Shown: piece after piece, positions 2,331-47,266 of the stretch | Numbering within the stretch: the first letter of the stretch is position 1 | Layout of the letters: every line of letters begins with the position of its first letter | NCBI GenBank assembly: GCA_030066685.1 | Contig: JASJBF010000051.1 | Coordinates: 1 to 64,000 of the forward strand | DNA length: 64,000 bases | Direction: 5' to 3' | From: Kiloniellales bacterium | Lineage (GTDB): Bacteria > Pseudomonadota > Alphaproteobacteria > Kiloniellales > JAKSBE01 | Position numbers and translations under genes: made by a program | Notes under the pieces: model-generated | What the model was told of the DNA's origin: nothing | Databases searched by the model: none | The model's input: only the letters and a program-made list of their open reading frames with translations

Positions 2331-3143
2331 ATGATCGCTTCAGATGACACCGCCGCCATCGGCGTCGACACCGAGGCCCGCGCCGAGATCGAGCGCCGAC
2401 TGGCCGCGATCGAGGCGGAGGAGGGGGTGGAAATCCTCTTCGCCGTCGAGTCGGGCTCCCGGGCCTGGGGCTTCGCCTCGCCCGACAGCGACTACGACGC
2501 CCGCTTCGTCTACCGCCATCCGCCGGCCTGGTACCTCTCGGTCCGCGAGGCGCGGGACGTGATAGACCGGCCGATCCTGGACGACTACGACGTCAACGGC
2601 TGGGACCTGAGGAAGGCGCTGCGCCTCTTGATGAAGTCCAACCCGCCGCTCTACGAATGGCTGCGCTCGCCCGTCGTCTATCGCGACCGCGACGGCTTCC
2701 GAGCGGCCCTGGCCGGCCTGGCCGAGGCGCACTACGCGCGGCGGGCCCTGGCCCATCACTACCGGAACATCGCCGGCGGCCACTGGCGCCGCGGCTTCCA
2801 GGGCCGCGACCGCGTGAAGCGGAAGAAGTACCTCTACATCCTCCGCGCCCTGCTGGCGATCGGCTGGCTGCGCCGGCACGAAAGCCTGCCGCCGATGAAC
2901 TTCCAGGAGCTGATGGCCGGGCAGTCGCTATCCGCCGACTTCGTCGCCGCGGCCGAGTCGCTGATCGCCGAAAAGGCCGCCACGCCGGAGCTGGGCGAGG
3001 CGCCGCCGATTCCGGCCCTCGACGCCTGGATCCTGGCGGCGCTCGAGGCCGCCGAGGGCTTCTGCCAGTCGCTGCCGCCCAGGCCGCCGGACCTCGAAGC
3101 GGTGGACGCCTTCTTCCGGCGCTGGGCCGGCGTCAGCGCCTAG
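2331..3143 (+). CDS. RlaP/YcgL-family predicted nucleotidyltransferase
   Basis: 270 aa. The N-terminal region has the DNA polymerase beta-type nucleotidyltransferase signature GSRAWGFASPDSDYD at about residues 44-58, where G-S and the two acidic residues of D-x-D bind metal and NTP. The next part, with YEWLRSPVVYR and an all-helical C-terminus, matches the PF10127 family (YcgL of Bacillus; RlaP beside RNA ligases). The biochemical role is not established; RNA-repair links come from gene neighbourhoods elsewhere. No RNA ligase is seen here. The stop codon TAG is supplied by the left edge of a dispersed repeat (3140-3246), so the last residues could differ from those of relatives. Confidence 0.8.
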   Translation: MIASDDTAAIGVDTEARAEIERRLAAIEAEEGVEILFAVESGSRAWGFASPDSDYDARFVYRHPPAWYLSVREARDVIDRPILDDYDVNGWDLRKALRLLMKSNPPLYEWLRSPVVYRDRDGFRAALAGLAEAHYARRALAHHYRNIAGGHWRRGFQGRDRVKRKKYLYILRALLAIGWLRRHESLPPMNFQELMAGQSLSADFVAAAESLIAEKAATPELGEAPPIPALDAWILAALEAAEGFCQSLPPRPPDLEAVDAFFRRWAGVSA

Positions 3144-3246
3144 ATCAAACTGCGCTCAATTGAAATCAATTGAGCGCAGCTGATTTGATCTATTCCATAT
3201 AAATAGAGCAGCTTATCTGCGTTCGAATCAACGCAGGCTGTTCTAG
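3140..3246. repeat. Two-hairpin dispersed repeat, copy 1
   Basis: About 107 bases, aligned without gaps to 8130-8236 with about 14 mismatches (87% identity); the first 23 bases are identical. The first hairpin is a perfect 13-bp stem CTGCGCTCAATTG (3150-3162) and CAATTGAGCGCAG (3167-3179) with loop AAAT, flanked by GATCAAA (3143-3149) and TTTGATC (3184-3190). The second hairpin is CTGCGTT (3217-3223) and AACGCAG (3230-3236). The element is much more AT-rich than its surroundings. It starts CTAG, which includes the stop codon of the nucleotidyltransferase gene, and ends near another CTAG. No ORF lies inside, so it would be a non-autonomous element or a folded RNA 3' end. Confidence 0.85.
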
Positions 3247-3424: not shown

Positions 3425-4198
3425 TCAGGAACCAGCGTTGTCGCGGGTGAGGATCGAGCGCACGGCTTCGATCAGCTTTTCTTGGACGGCAGTGGGTTTG
3501 CCCCGTGTCACCAAGAACATCGGCTGCTCGATGATCCGGTCGGATCTCAGTGGGAAGACGCTGTTGTTGACGGCTGCGCTTGCCGCGATGCCGATGGCAT
3601 TGGGCAACTGCGAGACGGCGAATACGACTTGGTTGCCGGACTGCACGAACTTCGAAACGGCCAAGACGTCACCCCATTCGCCGATCGTCTTTTCGACCAT
3701 GGTCCGGATTCCACCGCCCTGCGGCTCGGCGATGATCTCGATCTCCATGTTCGGGCCGCCCAGTTGGCTCCAGAACTTGATTCGCCCGGCCAGAATGTCG
3801 GTGATCTGCTCGAAGGTCAGCTCCTTGACCGGGTTGGAGGGATGAACGATGAAGGCCACGCTGGTCTTGCCGATGTCGTGCGCCTGCAGCTTTCGCCCGT
3901 CCACCGCTCCCGGGTTCTTGGTGTTGAGCTTCCGGACAACCTCCGCCAAGGGTGCCGAGACAGCCGCGACATCCGCTTCTCCCCGGTGCAGGGATAGGAC
4001 GCTGTTGCCGCTTCCGATGGAGCGCACGTTCAGCGTGATGCCGGCAAGCGTCTCGATCCGCGATTTGTAGGGCAGCAGAACCGCGTTCGCGACCGTGGTT
4101 GAGCTGGCGATCGATGTCTCCGCGGCATCGCCGCGCTCGGTCGCGCCAAGGAGAACCAGAAATGCGGCCACCGCCGTGATCAGCCCTCGCCAGATCAT
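3425..4198 (-). CDS. PstS-like periplasmic substrate-binding protein (paralogue A)
   Basis: 257 aa. The start ATG at 4198 is chosen because GGAGG lies eight bases upstream and a signal peptide (MIWRG...LLGATERGDA) follows directly. The mature protein is a PBP-like fold of the phosphate-binding type (PF12849 class): SSTTVANAVLLPY near the N-terminus, then IGSGNSVLSLHRGEADVAAVS, the VHPSNPVKELTFEQITDILAGRI segment typical of PstS relatives, and GGGIRTMVEKTIGEWGD. It is strikingly similar to the next gene (4691-5464), also 257 aa, so the two are tandem duplicates. No permease or ATPase is present, so a role as an orphan binding protein or sensor is as likely as transport. A palindrome TGTTTC-G-GAAACA lies at 4329-4341 upstream. 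Confidence 0.85.
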   Translation of the reverse strand: MIWRGLITAVAAFLVLLGATERGDAAETSIASSTTVANAVLLPYKSRIETLAGITLNVRSIGSGNSVLSLHRGEADVAAVSAPLAEVVRKLNTKNPGAVDGRKLQAHDIGKTSVAFIVHPSNPVKELTFEQITDILAGRIKFWSQLGGPNMEIEIIAEPQGGGIRTMVEKTIGEWGDVLAVSKFVQSGNQVVFAVSQLPNAIGIAASAAVNNSVFPLRSDRIIEQPMFLVTRGKPTAVQEKLIEAVRSILTRDNAGS

Positions 4199-4690
4199 GA
4201 TCTTTACCTCCAGCTCTGAAGGACTTTGGTGCCGTCCCGTTTCGGAATGGGTTTGGTGTTGAAGCCGTTCGCCCTGGAACCGCCGGTGATCAGAGGATCG
4301 CCGATCAGCACTGAAGATGCCGTTAAAATGTTTCGGAAACACTACACGTTATGGTTTGGCGATAGTCAGCTTCTTCAAGCTTCGCCTCAAGATGTGGCCA
4401 GTTAATCCATTGAGGAACTTATGCAAGTTCGTTGATCCAGGGTTACGGCTGGAGTCGCCGTACCGCCCCAGATAGAGGTGATCCCACTTCGGCGCTGGCC
4501 GCCCGGAGGCTCTCTTCCCCATCTTTGAAGACACAGGGGTTGATGGAAAGTGCTTGCGCTACGATCACGGCAAGGACAAGGCCGCGACGGCAAGCTCTTC
4601 CGCCGCGGCCCCTCCTCCTTGGCTTCGTTCCTCCTTGGTCTTGCTTCTCCCTCGTCTTCGCTTTCTTGGGCTTTCGGTTTTGGTGCTCGG
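4199..4690. other. Intergenic region with upstream palindrome, no gene supported
   Basis: This region between the tandem binding-protein genes contains the perfect 13-base palindrome TGTTTC-G-GAAACA at 4329-4341, about 130 bases upstream of the first gene's start, in a locally AT-rich stretch that probably holds its promoter. Further right is a hairpin downstream of the second gene (listed separately). Short frames here show no domain. Confidence 0.5.
4580..4610 (-). terminator. Terminator-like hairpin after paralogue B
   Basis: Read on the minus strand, GGCCGCGGCG (4610-4601) pairs with CGTCGCGGCC (4589-4580) over 10 bp with one G-U pair and an 11-base loop. TTGTCCTTG follows. The wobble pair works only in the minus-strand RNA. 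It is about 80 bases after the stop codon of the 4691-5464 gene. Confidence 0.4.
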
Positions 4691-5464
4691 TCAGGCGCCG
4701 GCCTTCTTGCCGAGCGACATGGCGCGCACGACCTCGATGAGTTTCTTCATGCGGGCGTCGGGGTCGCCGCGGGTGACCAGGAACAGGGGCTGCTCGATTA
4801 CGCGGTCGGAGTTCAGGACGAAGACGTTGTTGTCGATCGTGGTGTGGCTCGCGATGCCGATGGCGTTGGGCATGCGCGAGACGGCGAAGGCGACCAGCGA
4901 GGCGCTCTGCATGGTGTGCGTCTTGGTCAGGACGTCGCCCCATTCGCCGATGGTCTTCTCGACCATGGTGCGGATGCCGCCGCCGCGCGGCTCCGAGATC
5001 ACCCGGATCGGCATGTTGATCCCGCCGAGCTCGCTCCACAGGGTGATCCGCCCGGCCAGGATGTCGGCGATCTGCTCGAAGCTCAGGTCCTTGACCGGGT
5101 TCGAGGGATGGACCACGAAGGCCACCTTGGTGCTGCCGATGTCGTGCTGCTGCAGGCTGCGGCCGTCGACCGAGCCGGGCCTCTTGGAGTTGAGCCGCTG
5201 GACCACGTCGGCCAGGGGCGCGGAGATCGCCGCGATCTGGGCGCGGCCCTGCATCAGCGCCAGCACGCCGTTGCCGCTGCCGACCGCGTCGACCGCGAGC
5301 CGGAGCCGGGTCCGCTTCTCGATCTGCGACTTGTAGGGCAGCAGGACGGCGTTGGCGACGGTGGTGGAGCTGGCGACCGAGAGCTCCTCCGCCTGGCCCG
5401 GCTGCACGCCGTTGCCGAGGACCATGACGGCGGCCGCAAGGGCCAGCAAGCTGCGTCGGATCAT
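4691..5464 (-). CDS. PstS-like periplasmic substrate-binding protein (paralogue B)
   Basis: 257 aa from ATG 5464, with GGAG ten bases upstream and a signal peptide (MIRRSLLALAAAVMVLG...GQA) directly after. It shares nearly the whole core with paralogue A: SSTTVANAVLLPYKS, GSGN, ISAPLADVV, VAFVVHPSNPVKDLSFEQI, DILAGRI, GGGIRTMVEKTIGEWGD, PNAIGIA and IEQPLFLVTRGDP. These regions line a phosphate-type anion pocket in PstS-like proteins, but no ligand can be assigned. Both copies keep the same length and order, indicating duplication followed by divergence rather than decay. Different upstream palindromes suggest separate regulation. No ABC permease or ATPase lies nearby. Confidence 0.85.
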   Translation of the reverse strand: MIRRSLLALAAAVMVLGNGVQPGQAEELSVASSTTVANAVLLPYKSQIEKRTRLRLAVDAVGSGNGVLALMQGRAQIAAISAPLADVVQRLNSKRPGSVDGRSLQQHDIGSTKVAFVVHPSNPVKDLSFEQIADILAGRITLWSELGGINMPIRVISEPRGGGIRTMVEKTIGEWGDVLTKTHTMQSASLVAFAVSRMPNAIGIASHTTIDNNVFVLNSDRVIEQPLFLVTRGDPDARMKKLIEVVRAMSLGKKAGA

Positions 5465-5589
5465 GCCTTTCCACTCCATCTTCTTGGCCAAAGGCGCGAT
5501 GCCCCGGGTCCGGTGACCCGCCAAGGCCCGCGCGGGCCCGGCGTCGATCGGTTCCTGCAACCGATGGATGGAAGTATAGAGATCCGAGC

Positions 5590-7362: not shown

Positions 7363-8133
7363 ATGGTGCTTGAGGGACTGCTGCTCGATCTGGAGGGCGT
7401 GCTCTACCAGGAGGACGCGGCGATTCCGGGCGCGGCCGAGGCGGTGCGGGCCTTGCAGGGGCGCGGGCTGGCGCTGCGCGGGCTGACCAACACCACGACC
7501 CGGCCGCGGCGCGAGATCGCGGGGCGTCTGGCCGGTCTGGGCATCCCGCTCGGGGTCGAGACCATTTTCACGCCGCCGGTCGCCGCGGCCCGGGCGCTGG
7601 CGACCGAGGGGCTGCGGCGCCTGCACCTGGCGGCGACGCCGGCGCTGGCCGAGGACTTCGCCGGCTTCGAGCTGGTCGACGAAGCGCCCGAGGCCGTGGT
7701 CCTGGGCGACCTCTACCGGGACTTCACCTGGGAGCGGCTGAACCGCCTCTTCGGCTACCTGCGCGACGGCGCCCGGCTGATCGCCCTACACAAGAACCGT
7801 GTCTCGCGGCGCGGCGCCGAGATCGCGCTCGACCTCGGGCCCTTCGTGGCGGCGTTGGAATACGCCAGCGGCCGGGAGGCCCTGGTCGTCGGCAAGCCGG
7901 CGCGGGCCTTCTTCGAGCTGGCCCTGGCCGACCTGGGGCTCGAGGCCGCCGCGGTGGCCATGGTCGGCGACGACCTCGAAGCCGATATCGGCGGCGCCCA
8001 GGAAGCCGGTCTGGTCGCGATCCAGGTCGAGACCGGCAAGTTCACCGCGGCCGACCGCGACCACCCGCGGATCCGGCCCGACCGGCGGGTCGCCAGCTTC
8101 GCCGAGCTGCCGGCACTGCTCGAGGCGGGCTAG
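7363..8133 (+). CDS. HAD-superfamily IIA hydrolase, LHPP/HDHD2-like
   Basis: 256 aa. The start ATG 7363 follows GGAGAGG with six bases spacing. Motif I reads LLLDLEGVLYQED, so the usual DxD is D-x-E. LHPP and HDHD2 proteins also replace the second aspartate here, so this is a subfamily trait rather than decay. Motif II is LTNTTTRP, the motif III lysine is in VVGKPARAFFELAL, and motif IV is MVGDDLEADIGGAQEAG. A C2-type cap lies between motifs II and III. Such enzymes hydrolyse small phosphoesters or phospholysine/phosphohistidine/pyrophosphate, with substrate uncertain. The stop TAG is shared with repeat copy 2 (8130-8236), exactly as in the gene ending at 3143. Confidence 0.85.
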   Translation: MVLEGLLLDLEGVLYQEDAAIPGAAEAVRALQGRGLALRGLTNTTTRPRREIAGRLAGLGIPLGVETIFTPPVAAARALATEGLRRLHLAATPALAEDFAGFELVDEAPEAVVLGDLYRDFTWERLNRLFGYLRDGARLIALHKNRVSRRGAEIALDLGPFVAALEYASGREALVVGKPARAFFELALADLGLEAAAVAMVGDDLEADIGGAQEAGLVAIQVETGKFTAADRDHPRIRPDRRVASFAELPALLEAG

Positions 8134-8236
8134 ATCAAACTGCGCTCAATTGGACTCAGTTGAGTGCAGATAATTTGACCTATTTCATATAGATAGAGCA
8201 GCTTGTCTGCGTTCGAATGAACGCCGGCTGCTCCAG
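8130..8236. repeat. Two-hairpin dispersed repeat, copy 2
   Basis: Gapless partner of 3140-3246 in the same orientation relative to the upstream gene, again starting at CTAG of the stop codon. The first hairpin here is CTGCGCTCAATTG with CAGTTGAGTGCAG. The two differences from copy 1 turn Watson-Crick pairs into G-U pairs in the + strand RNA, so the fold is kept. The second hairpin is CTGCGTT with AACGCCG, weakened by one mismatch. Just right of the copy is a small hairpin AGACGC-GAAG-GCGTCT (8253-8268) followed by TGATCGGGAAG, and that segment recurs at 47227-47250. Confidence 0.85.
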
Positions 8237-8301
8237 GGCACGACATCCGGCCAGACGCGAAGGCGTCTGATCGGGAAGGGCGCTGGCGCTGGAAAGCAGA
8301 A

Positions 8302-33675: not shown

Positions 33676-33921
33676 GACCGCTCCTTTGGATATCGTGGGT
33701 TCGCAGACCCGCAAACAACGAGACGGCGCGATCCTAGCGAAGCCGTCGTGGAAGGGCCAGAGCCGAAATCCCGCGGATTTCTGCGGCTGCGGGCGGGGAA
33801 TGCCACGCAAGAGAGGATTGATTTGGAATTCGGCGCCACAACTGCGCTAGAGTGCCGCCGGCACCGCGCGGTCGCGAGGCGGGCGCCGCTCGGGAAGGGC
33901 TCTTTCAGGAAGGAAGCGCGC

Positions 33922-39395: not shown

Positions 39396-39446
39396 CGCTA
39401 GCCCCAGACCCCCAAATCTAGAAGACCGTCACCGTCCTGTCATCGG

Positions 39447-39461
39447 GAACAAAACAGGAAC
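39447..39461. promoter_or_regulatory. LexA (SOS) box of the alphaproteobacterial type
   Basis: GAAC-AAAACAG-GAAC, exact GAAC-N7-GAAC (equivalently GTTC-CTGTTTT-GTTC on the nrdA strand), the established alphaproteobacterial LexA site. It is about 145 bases upstream of the nrdA start codon. The nearest other gene (39531) ends here rather than starting, so nrdA is the probable target. Confidence 0.75.
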
Positions 39462-39530
39462 ATTCAGGTTAACGAAGAGCGCCGCCGATCGCAAGCGACC
39501 GCTGGTCGAGAATCCGTCGAGCGGTTTCGC

Positions 39531-40442
39531 CTAGCGCAGGGCGCGCCAGAAGGCGTTATCCGGCGGGACGTCCAGGGTCTCGAAGACCCGGAAGGCGTCG
39601 TTGAACCAGGCGACGAAGCGGTCGGCGTGGTGGCCGGTTCCGATCGGGAACTGGCGCATTTTCCAGCGGTTCCCGGGGCTGTCGTTGCGGATCACGCTGC
39701 CGGCGTTGTAGGCGCAGGCGACCTTGGGCGGGTCGAGGTCGGTCTTGCGCCTCTGCCGGCCGATGTAGGCGGTCCCGGCCTGGATCGAGTTGTCGGCGAT
39801 GAGGAGCCAGTCCCGGTCGATGCTCGGGTCGTCCAGGGCCTCGCGCGCGGTCGAGATCAAAGTCTGCATGAGTCCCGCCGAGATCCGGTGCGGCGTCGCC
39901 TCGTCGCTGACGTAGCCCGGCTCGATGCGCAAGGCCTCGGGATTGCCCCGGGATTCCGTGCAGATGGTCGCCAGGACCAGCTCGACCGGAACGTCGAAGA
40001 CGTCGCACCACTGCGAGATCGATCGGCCGAGGGCGTCCCAGACCCGCCGCACGGTCAGCGGCCGCCCTGGGGTGACCTCGGGTGCGGCGTCCTCGATTCG
40101 CAGGCCGTCGGCCGCCAGCCGCCATTCGACGCTGCCGAAGATGCCGTGGTTCACGGTCAGCGGCGGCAGCAGGTCGATCCAGGGGCCCGGCGTGCCGCTC
40201 GGCGTTTCGGGAGGCCGGGCGTCGAAGAGTGCCGCCCGGGTGATCTCGCCGAAGATCCCGTCGACCCCGAGCCCGCGCGCGCGCTGGAACAGGCGCAGGG
40301 CGCTGTCGGTATCAGGGCCGAAAACCCCGTCGGCGCGGCCGACCTCCTCGAAGCCCAGTTCCAGGAGCCGTTCCTGGACCCGCTCGACGTCCTCGCCGCG
40401 CAGGAAGGGACGCGTCAGCTTCAGGGTTCGGGTCAAAGCCAT
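39531..40442 (-). CDS. Peptidoglycan-binding and lytic-transglycosylase-like protein
   Basis: 303 aa. Residues ~10-72 are a PG_binding_1 domain (RPFLRGEDVERVQERLLELGFEEVGRADGVFGPDTDSALRLFQRARGLGVDGIFGEITRAAL). From ~135 a lysozyme/SLT-like fold follows: VPVELVLATICTESRGNPEALR supplies the catalytic Glu, then ISAGLMQTLISTAREAL, NSIQAGTAYIGRQ and CAYNAGSVIRN, matching E-S-x-G, GLMQ and AYNAG motifs. There is no signal peptide, so it may leave the cell by holin- or GTA-like means, or act on phage-like peptidoglycan. It is the gene directly upstream of nrdAB but separated from it by the regulatory region. Confidence 0.82.
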   Translation of the reverse strand: MALTRTLKLTRPFLRGEDVERVQERLLELGFEEVGRADGVFGPDTDSALRLFQRARGLGVDGIFGEITRAALFDARPPETPSGTPGPWIDLLPPLTVNHGIFGSVEWRLAADGLRIEDAAPEVTPGRPLTVRRVWDALGRSISQWCDVFDVPVELVLATICTESRGNPEALRIEPGYVSDEATPHRISAGLMQTLISTAREALDDPSIDRDWLLIADNSIQAGTAYIGRQRRKTDLDPPKVACAYNAGSVIRNDSPGNRWKMRQFPIGTGHHADRFVAWFNDAFRVFETLDVPPDNAFWRALR

Positions 40443-46723: not shown

Positions 46724-47266
46724 GGCGGCTACTCCTTGTCCTTTTCCACAGACTCACCGCTTCCCGCGGAGCTGCGTTCCGAAGCGGGGCTTGACGGCTG
46801 CGTTCTGCGGCCTCAAGGAGCGCCTATTGAACGAGATCAATCATAGAATTGACAGTGTCATTTAAATGGCCTGTGTCAGTATTTAGGCAGAAATGATTAT
46901 GGTTTACATAGTATTTATTGATTAATACTTGAATAATTGCTTGATCTTTCGGACCGGCGCTCCGGGCGCGGGACCAGGCCGAACCGCGCATCGCGGGCAG
47001 TGACGGGGCGGGCGCGGGGAACGCTCTCTGCCATCCGAGGCTGCGGCCCGGAGACTTGGCCGTTTAGGATCCGAGCGGCCGCGGACCCGACTGTCGTGAC
47101 ATTTCTGTGGCGCGGCCGCGAGGGCGGACGAAGCGGGCGCCTGGCGATGAGCCGGCGGGTTGTGGCCCGGAGCGTTATCGCAGGGCTCCCGGCCGGCCGC
47201 GTCCGATTGGGAGGTGGCTTAGCGCACTTCCCGATCAGACGCGTTCGCGTTCGATCGGACAACGCC
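46724..47266. other. AT-rich intergenic region upstream of tadG-like gene
   Basis: 543 bases without a supported gene. The segment 46830-46940 is strongly AT-rich and probably includes the tadG promoter. It contains TGACA-G-TGTCA (46850-46860) and AGTATT/AATACT (46910-46915 and 46924-46929) as inverted repeats. At 47227-47250 a 24-base segment matches one beside repeat copy 2 (23 of 24 bases, opposite strand). No tRNA or small RNA recognised. Confidence 0.5.

What the first reader, a model, noticed from the sequence alone, without database searches (positions are those of the whole stretch)
3140..3246. Two-copy folded repeat of about 107 bp (also at 8130-8236)
The two loci 5 kb apart align without gaps at about 87% identity, and all 107 bases form two conserved hairpins. 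The 13-bp first stem is perfect in copy 1. In copy 2 the two differences inside the stem are both G-U-compatible, which suggests selection on the RNA shape. The AT content contrasts with the GC-rich surroundings. There is no ORF, so this is either a non-autonomous mobile element or a folded 3'-end RNA element.
Basis: seen in the sequence. Interest (0 to 1): 0.7.

Follow-up and report, generated by a model that had tools for sequence, protein, structure and literature searches.

The report
CTAG-inserting double-hairpin mobile repeat
The two 107-base folded repeats belong to a family of small gene-less mobile elements, with at least 60 copies in this alphaproteobacterium, that insert into the rare sequence CTAG, often exactly at a gene's TAG stop codon; the family is of a known general type (CIR/RIME-like repeats), and the comparison shows the insertion footprint, which a 2007 review listed as unknown for that type.

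Summary
In detail: 3140-3246 and 8130-8236 are two copies (87%) of one element running from CTAG to CTAG and folding into two hairpins. A covariance model finds 63 copies in this genome and at least 148 and 98 in two congeners (Kiloniellales MAGs), with weaker relatives in 20 further genomes of the order. Stems covary strongly. Orthologous empty sites carry ONE CTAG where the filled site has two, so these are insertions with a CTAG (or TA) duplication. About half of the copies have the boundary TAG as a gene's in-frame stop codon; insertion keeps the stop. Nearest relatives are almost always in the same genome (95/100), meaning amplification since the species split. The anatomy (about 110 bp, two arms plus linker, TA ends, GANTC in one apical loop) is that of CIR elements of Caulobacter/Brucella, whose target duplication and mobility were listed as unknown in 2007. 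I call it a new CIR-type family. The transposase is not identified; neither REP-associated tyrosine transposases nor IS630 co-occur significantly with the element. Sequence homology to published CIR1-4 could not be tested.

The parts
3140..3246 (+). element copy 1, CTAG to CTAG, 107 bp
   Evidence: de novo CTAG-hairpin scan
8130..8236 (+). element copy 2, 107 bp; right CTAG decayed to CCAG
3140..3143 (.). left CTAG; its TAG (3141-3143) is the stop codon of the RlaP-like gene 2331-3143
3243..3246 (.). right CTAG of copy 1 (duplicated target)
3141..3192 (+). hairpin 1: outer stem 3141-3149/3184-3192, inner stem 3150-3162/3167-3179, loop 3163-3166, 3' bulge 3180-3183
3193..3203 (+). 11-nt linker
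3204..3245 (+). hairpin 2: outer stem 3204-3212/3237-3245, 5' bulge 3213-3216, inner stem 3217-3224/3229-3236, loop 3225-3228
8130..8133 (.). left CTAG of copy 2; its TAG (8131-8133) is the stop codon of the HAD-IIA hydrolase gene ending at 8133
8153..8157 (+). GACTC (GANTC, CcrM-type site) at the apical loop of hairpin 1 of copy 2; copy 1 has lost it (AAATC)
8131..8182 (+). hairpin 1 of copy 2
8194..8235 (+). hairpin 2 of copy 2
8235..8284 (-). remnant hairpin of a second CTAG-bounded family (C) abutting copy 2
   Evidence: 88% over 50 bp

Best explanation
A non-autonomous transposable element of the CIR type. Shown: it is a discrete 107-bp unit of two diverged, inverted, bulged hairpins; it inserts into a pre-existing CTAG; after insertion CTAG stands at both ends, so a target of CTAG (or its TA) is duplicated; because CTAG is about 5-6 times rarer than base composition predicts and often supplies TAG stop codons, about half of the insertions fall exactly on a gene's stop codon and restore it, which makes them nearly harmless; it has amplified separately in each species. 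Inferred: both ends are bound in trans by a transposase that reads CTAG plus the bulged hairpin; the enzyme is unknown. Inferred: 4-nt bulge gains and losses, and part of the paired stem changes, arise by hairpin-templated (quasipalindrome) correction in DNA rather than by selection on RNA.
For: Exact limits: of 115 full copies 104 begin CTAG and 83 end CTAG, with no further consensus in the flanks. Empty sites: orthologues of L002, L013 and L007 have one CTAG (GTCTAGGA, CGCTAGAT, GGCTAGGC) where the own genome has CTAG-element-CTAG; in L019, L020, L021, L027 the orthologue has TTAG, TTAG, CTGA, CTAA at the same place. An insertion at one stop codon is shared between two species (L017/L119). 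Stop codons: 50/103 copies have the boundary TAG in frame with a coding flank, against 63/268 other CTAG sites, p = 5e-6. CTAG depletion: 35 against 185 expected, 421 against 2400. Structure: 14 of 39 pairs changed on both sides, 85 such cells against 26 in shuffles; other genera keep 107 bp, CTAG ends and the bulge positions with different stem sequences. De novo scan: 12 of 87 CTAG pairs bound a double hairpin, 0 of 233 GTAC and 0 of 55 TTAA pairs (the stretches from other genera had been chosen for hits). Nearest relative in the same genome for 95/100. Bulge states vary only by the 4-nt unit in 39/110.
Against: No transposase shares its ends: close matches to the terminal 15-mer in the own genome that were read are element copies or fragments, none beside a transposase. 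REP-associated tyrosine transposase (PF01797) and IS630 (PF13358) do not co-occur significantly with the element in 63 genomes (p = 0.31 and 0.30). A duplication of TA cannot be told from one of CTAG. The empty-site alignments are at roughly 75-85% identity, so some flanks are uncertain. Covariation can come from DNA-level hairpin correction, so it does not prove selection on structure. No movement was observed directly.
Confidence: 0.85

Rival explanations
1. A REPIN-like element moved by a REP-associated tyrosine transposase (RAYT, HUH/Y1 chemistry): two inverted REP-like hairpins, each with a tetranucleotide at its foot and a bulge, cut as single-stranded DNA; with both cleavage sites equal to CTAG the footprint would look like a duplication.
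For: Two inverted, homologous, bulged hairpins with a tetranucleotide directly at the foot of each; bulge position kept across families A, B, C and across genera; RAYT-like genes in all three congeners.
Against: RAYT genes are described as always flanked by two inverted REPs with a GT(A/G)G head (PMC2817692): here the head is CTAG and no element lies within the 2-5 kb read around the RAYT genes. 10 of 23 element-bearing genomes have no Y1_Tnp match, among them two with 13-14 copies.
Confidence: 0.2
2. A MITE of a DDE insertion sequence that targets CTAG (IS630/Tc1-mariner or IS5 family), cut as double-stranded DNA and inserted with TA (or CTAG) duplication.
For: IS630-type and IS5-type elements in these very genomes lie between CTAGs with terminal inverted repeats (L197, L199, L203, L204). 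IS630-family transposition duplicates TA (PMC2170065); RUP, a 107-bp repeat, is thought to be mobilised by an IS630 element (PMC2229807).
Against: None of those ISs shares the element's ends; DDE_3 is absent from 9 of 23 element-bearing genomes, including ones with 11-14 copies; maintenance of bulged palindromes is not expected of ordinary double-stranded terminal repeats. IS5 (PF01609) was not surveyed outside the genus.
Confidence: 0.35
3. A conserved RNA 3'-end element (mRNA stabiliser or terminator) kept by selection on RNA folding at gene 3' ends.
For: Position at stop codons, strong folding, modest excess of left-end-first orientation at stops (37 of 54, p = 0.009).
Against: G.U = A.C in stems, also in transcript orientation; no T-run and no terminator call on the element; absent from orthologous genes in congeners; position explained by the CTAG target.
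Confidence: 0.07

Closest known systems
CIR elements (Caulobacter CcrM-associated intergenic repeats; Chen and Shapiro 2003 as reviewed in PMC2229807)
   Same: about 110 bp, intergenic, two long inverted repeats forming two arms joined by a linker, TA at the termini, GANTC at the terminal loop of one arm, alphaproteobacteria
   Different: sequence relation to CIR1-4 untested (sequences not held); target duplication, CTAG preference and stop-codon placement are shown here and were listed as unknown or not mentioned for CIR in that review
RIME elements of Rhizobium (Osteras 1995; cited in PMC2573895)
   Same: short intergenic mosaic repeats of rhizobia; a Rhizobium plasmid repeat homologous to sister family B has two bulged arms, GATTC in the bulge and a right-hand CTAG
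   Different: no DNA similarity of family A to plasmid-borne repeats; whether the Rhizobium repeat found is RIME1 itself was not tested
REPINs / REPs with RAYTs (PMC3116915, PMC2817692)
   Same: doublet of inverted palindromes with tetranucleotide heads, non-autonomous, compensatory changes
   Different: CTAG instead of GT(A/G)G, two separate arms, CTAG at both ends after insertion, no RAYT linkage
RUP and Correia/NEMIS (IS630-type MITEs)
   Same: size near 107 bp, TA-type duplication, dispersed copies
   Different: those form one stem from 5' and 3' ends; here each end forms its own hairpin

Membership tests
CIR elements | about 110 bp, two long inverted repeats as two arms joined by a linker | tested here: met
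   107 bp, two hairpins, 11-nt linker in most of 110 parsed copies
CIR elements | GANTC at or in the terminal loop of one arm | tested here: met
   85 of 110 copies, only hairpin 1; the N is the variable base
CIR elements | TA at both termini | tested here: met
   CTAG at 104/115 left and 83/115 right ends
CIR elements | sequence homology to CIR1-4 of Caulobacter/Brucella | not testable with these tools
CIR elements | host has CcrM methyltransferase | not tested
   no genome searches left; GANTC is at 0.69 of the composition expectation in 796 kb, within the range of other such pentamers
REPIN/REP | GT(A/G)G head next to the palindrome | tested here: not met
   head is CTAG
REPIN/REP | RAYT gene flanked by the same repeats | tested here: not met
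   no element within 2-5 kb of the four RAYT-like genes, one of them cut by a contig end
IS630-type MITE | TA duplication on insertion | tested here: met
   one CTAG in empty, two in filled sites; TA and CTAG not distinguishable
IS630-type MITE | terminal inverted repeats shared with an IS630 element of the same genome | tested here: not met
   ends of L197 and L199 differ
RIME | sequence relation to RIME1/RIME2 | tested here: inconclusive
   no plasmid match for family A; sister family B matches an unnamed Rhizobium repeat at 76%

The most novel reading that the evidence does not exclude
CIR, RIME and the families A, B, C seen here are one superfamily across alphaproteobacteria: CTAG-targeting elements recognised not by sequence but by two mirror-image bulged DNA hairpins, moved by a transposase that is neither a RAYT nor IS630 and is not yet known.
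Probability: 0.25. Interest if true: 0.65.

Novelty: new member of a known kind. Interest (0 to 1): 0.42.

Why it matters
[quoted passage not shown] The orthologous empty sites here give a footprint (single CTAG to CTAG-element-CTAG) and a reason for their intergenic, 3'-end position: the target CTAG is rare and often is a stop codon that insertion preserves. Equal G.U and A.C counts are also a simple test that separates DNA-level palindromes from conserved RNA structures, which are easily confused when stems covary.

Tried and rejected
Rfam: only a tRNA in the window. Plasmid search with family A: nothing. Three copies ending abruptly (L053, L057, L060) were read as possible left ends of an autonomous element: no transposase follows. 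RAYT neighbourhoods: no element. IS630 and IS5 ends: CTAG-bounded but different ends. Co-occurrence of PF01797 and PF13358 with the element over 63 genomes: no significant association. Window CTAG pairs at 33734-33850 and 39398-39534: not double hairpins. Exact-pattern hits in a Rhodospirillales MAG (L137) and a contig labelled Bifidobacterium breve (L148) are chance matches without the fold.

Full report
What is there. Copy 1 (3140-3246) and copy 2 (8130-8236) are the same 107-bp element in the same orientation, 87% identical and without gaps. Each is two hairpins separated by an 11-nt linker. Hairpin 1 has a 9-bp outer stem, a 13-bp inner stem, a 4-nt loop and a 4-nt bulge on its 3' side; hairpin 2 has 9 + 8 bp, a 4-nt loop and a 4-nt bulge on its 5' side. 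The two hairpins resemble each other in inverse orientation (CTAGATCAAACTGCG at one end, CTAGAGCAGCCTGCG at the other), with the bulges ATAA and TTAT in mirror positions. The element starts and ends with CTAG.

Family size and spread. blastn finds about 40 copies in the genome; a covariance model built from 60 copies finds 63 at E <= 0.001, and 148 and 98 in the two congeners (150 candidates scored per genome, so the first figure is a lower bound). In the whole order 23 of 63 genomes have matches. The best of these in other genera (L213, L214, L215) again measure 107 bp, run CTAG to CTAG and keep both bulges, while the stems have different sequences; in three other families the model picks up 140-141-bp elements of the same plan. 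Within the genus, 95 of 100 copies have their nearest relative in their own genome, so each species has amplified its own version. Sampling of the congeners' copies was by similarity, which should not create this pattern.

Mobility and target. Of 115 full copies, 104 start with CTAG and 83 end with it; flanks beyond CTAG show no consensus. Searching the joined flanks of 15 own copies against the congeners gave orthologous loci without the element. In three (L002, L013, L007) the empty site has exactly one CTAG at the junction; in four more it has TTAG, CTGA or CTAA at the same place. One stop codon carries an insertion in both species (L017 and L119). Filled sites therefore hold one CTAG more than empty ones. 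Because CTAG is palindromic, duplication of TA and duplication of CTAG give the same result.

Why at stop codons. CTAG is strongly depleted (35 in the window against 185 expected; 421 against 2400 in 796 kb). Scored with a codon model trained on the window, 50 of 103 copies have the boundary TAG as the in-frame stop of a flanking coding sequence, compared with 63 of 268 other CTAG sites (Fisher p = 5e-6). In the window these genes are an RlaP-family protein (PF10127) and a HAD-IIA hydrolase (TIGR01458). The target supplies the stop codon and insertion restores it; insertions elsewhere in genes would be removed by selection, which probably accounts for the enrichment (inference). Left-end-first orientation at stops is somewhat favoured (37 of 54, p = 0.009); I have no explanation for this.

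RNA or DNA. Stems covary: 14 of 39 pairs have changes on both sides, 85 such cells against a shuffled mean of 26, and sliding the partner by 1-3 columns destroys it. This alone does not show RNA. If resident copies were kept as RNA, G.U would be tolerated over A.C; the counts are 118 and 116, and 47 and 44 when oriented by the transcript of the upstream gene. Also, 39 of 110 copies lack, or have on the other arm or on both arms, exactly one 4-nt bulge unit, as expected when a hairpin in DNA templates the correction of one arm by the other (inference from established knowledge of quasipalindrome correction). Resident copies look like neutral relics, and the folded form matters, if at all, to the mobile lineage.

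Sister families. The same genomes hold other CTAG-bounded double hairpins with the same mirrored bulges but unrelated sequence: B (117 bp, L206:1931-2047) and C (128 bp, L203:971-1098), and a further 117-bp one (L274:19444-19560). In an unselected 796 kb of this genome plus the window and in hit-containing stretches of seven other genomes, 12 of 87 CTAG pairs at 70-200 bp bound such a fold, against 0 of 233 GTAC pairs and 0 of 55 TTAA pairs. Families share CTAGs when adjacent. A Rhizobium plasmid repeat (57 records) is homologous to B and has two bulged arms with a CTAG at its right end. A Hyphomicrobiales MAG has a mosaic of hairpin 1 of A with another right arm (L140).

Enzyme. RAYT-like genes occur in all three congeners, without the element nearby. 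IS630- and IS5-type elements sit between CTAGs in these genomes but have other ends. Over 63 genomes neither PF01797 nor PF13358 is associated with the element (13/23 against 17/40, p = 0.31; 14/23 against 18/40, p = 0.30), and five element-bearing genomes, two of them with 13-14 copies, have neither. The mobilising enzyme stays open.

Comparison with the known. The review PMC2229807 describes CIR repeats of Caulobacter and Brucella: about 110 bp, two long inverted repeats as two arms with a linker, GANTC at the terminal loop of one arm, TA at the termini, target duplication unknown, mobility mechanism unclear. Element A matches every item that could be tested; GANTC is in the loop of hairpin 1 in 85 of 110 copies with only the N variable. 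I could not compare sequences with CIR1-4. By plan it also works like a REPIN, but it fails two defining features of that class (head sequence and RAYT linkage).

Verdict. A real mobile repeat family, of a known kind, with a newly visible insertion footprint. Not an RNA element by present evidence.

Noticed in passing
L206:1931-2047, L203:971-1098, L274:19444-19560: Three further CTAG-bounded double-hairpin families with the same mirrored bulges and unrelated sequence; a fourth CTAG-bounded repeat (D, L094, starts CTAGTGTCCC) is less regular.
   Followed up: partly
window 8235-8284 and 47220-47250: Fragments of family C; the first abuts copy 2 of the element.
   Followed up: partly
L199, L197, L203, L204: IS630-type and IS5-type insertion sequences of the same genus also lie between CTAGs: CTAG is a shared hot spot for several mobile elements here.
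   Followed up: partly
L327:1431-1590, L328:1431-1590: Rhizobium plasmid intergenic repeat, homologous to family B, with two bulged arms and GATTC in the bulge; possibly RIME1, in 57 plasmid records.
   Followed up: partly
L126:417-466: A single perfect CTAG-to-CTAG hairpin in the style of hairpin 1, in a contig binned as Thiohalocapsa from the same metagenome as PL23b_bin.6; possible mis-binning.
   Followed up: no
L140: Mosaic: hairpin 1 of family A joined to another right arm ending CTAG in a Hyphomicrobiales MAG.
   Followed up: no
window 3425-4342 and 4691-5560 (minus): Two neighbouring paralogous PstS-like substrate-binding proteins, about 78% identical DNA over 300 bp.
   Followed up: partly
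L062 (contig C10 end): RAYT-like gene (Y1_Tnp) cut by the contig end; CTAGCGCTAG lies just upstream of its start.
   Followed up: partly
L052, L064, L065: Three identical copies lie within 25 bp of contig ends, so the assembly seems to break at a longer repeat next to the element.
   Followed up: no
54 copy ends at stop codons: The left end lies at the stop codon more often than the right end (37 to 17); unexplained.
   Followed up: no
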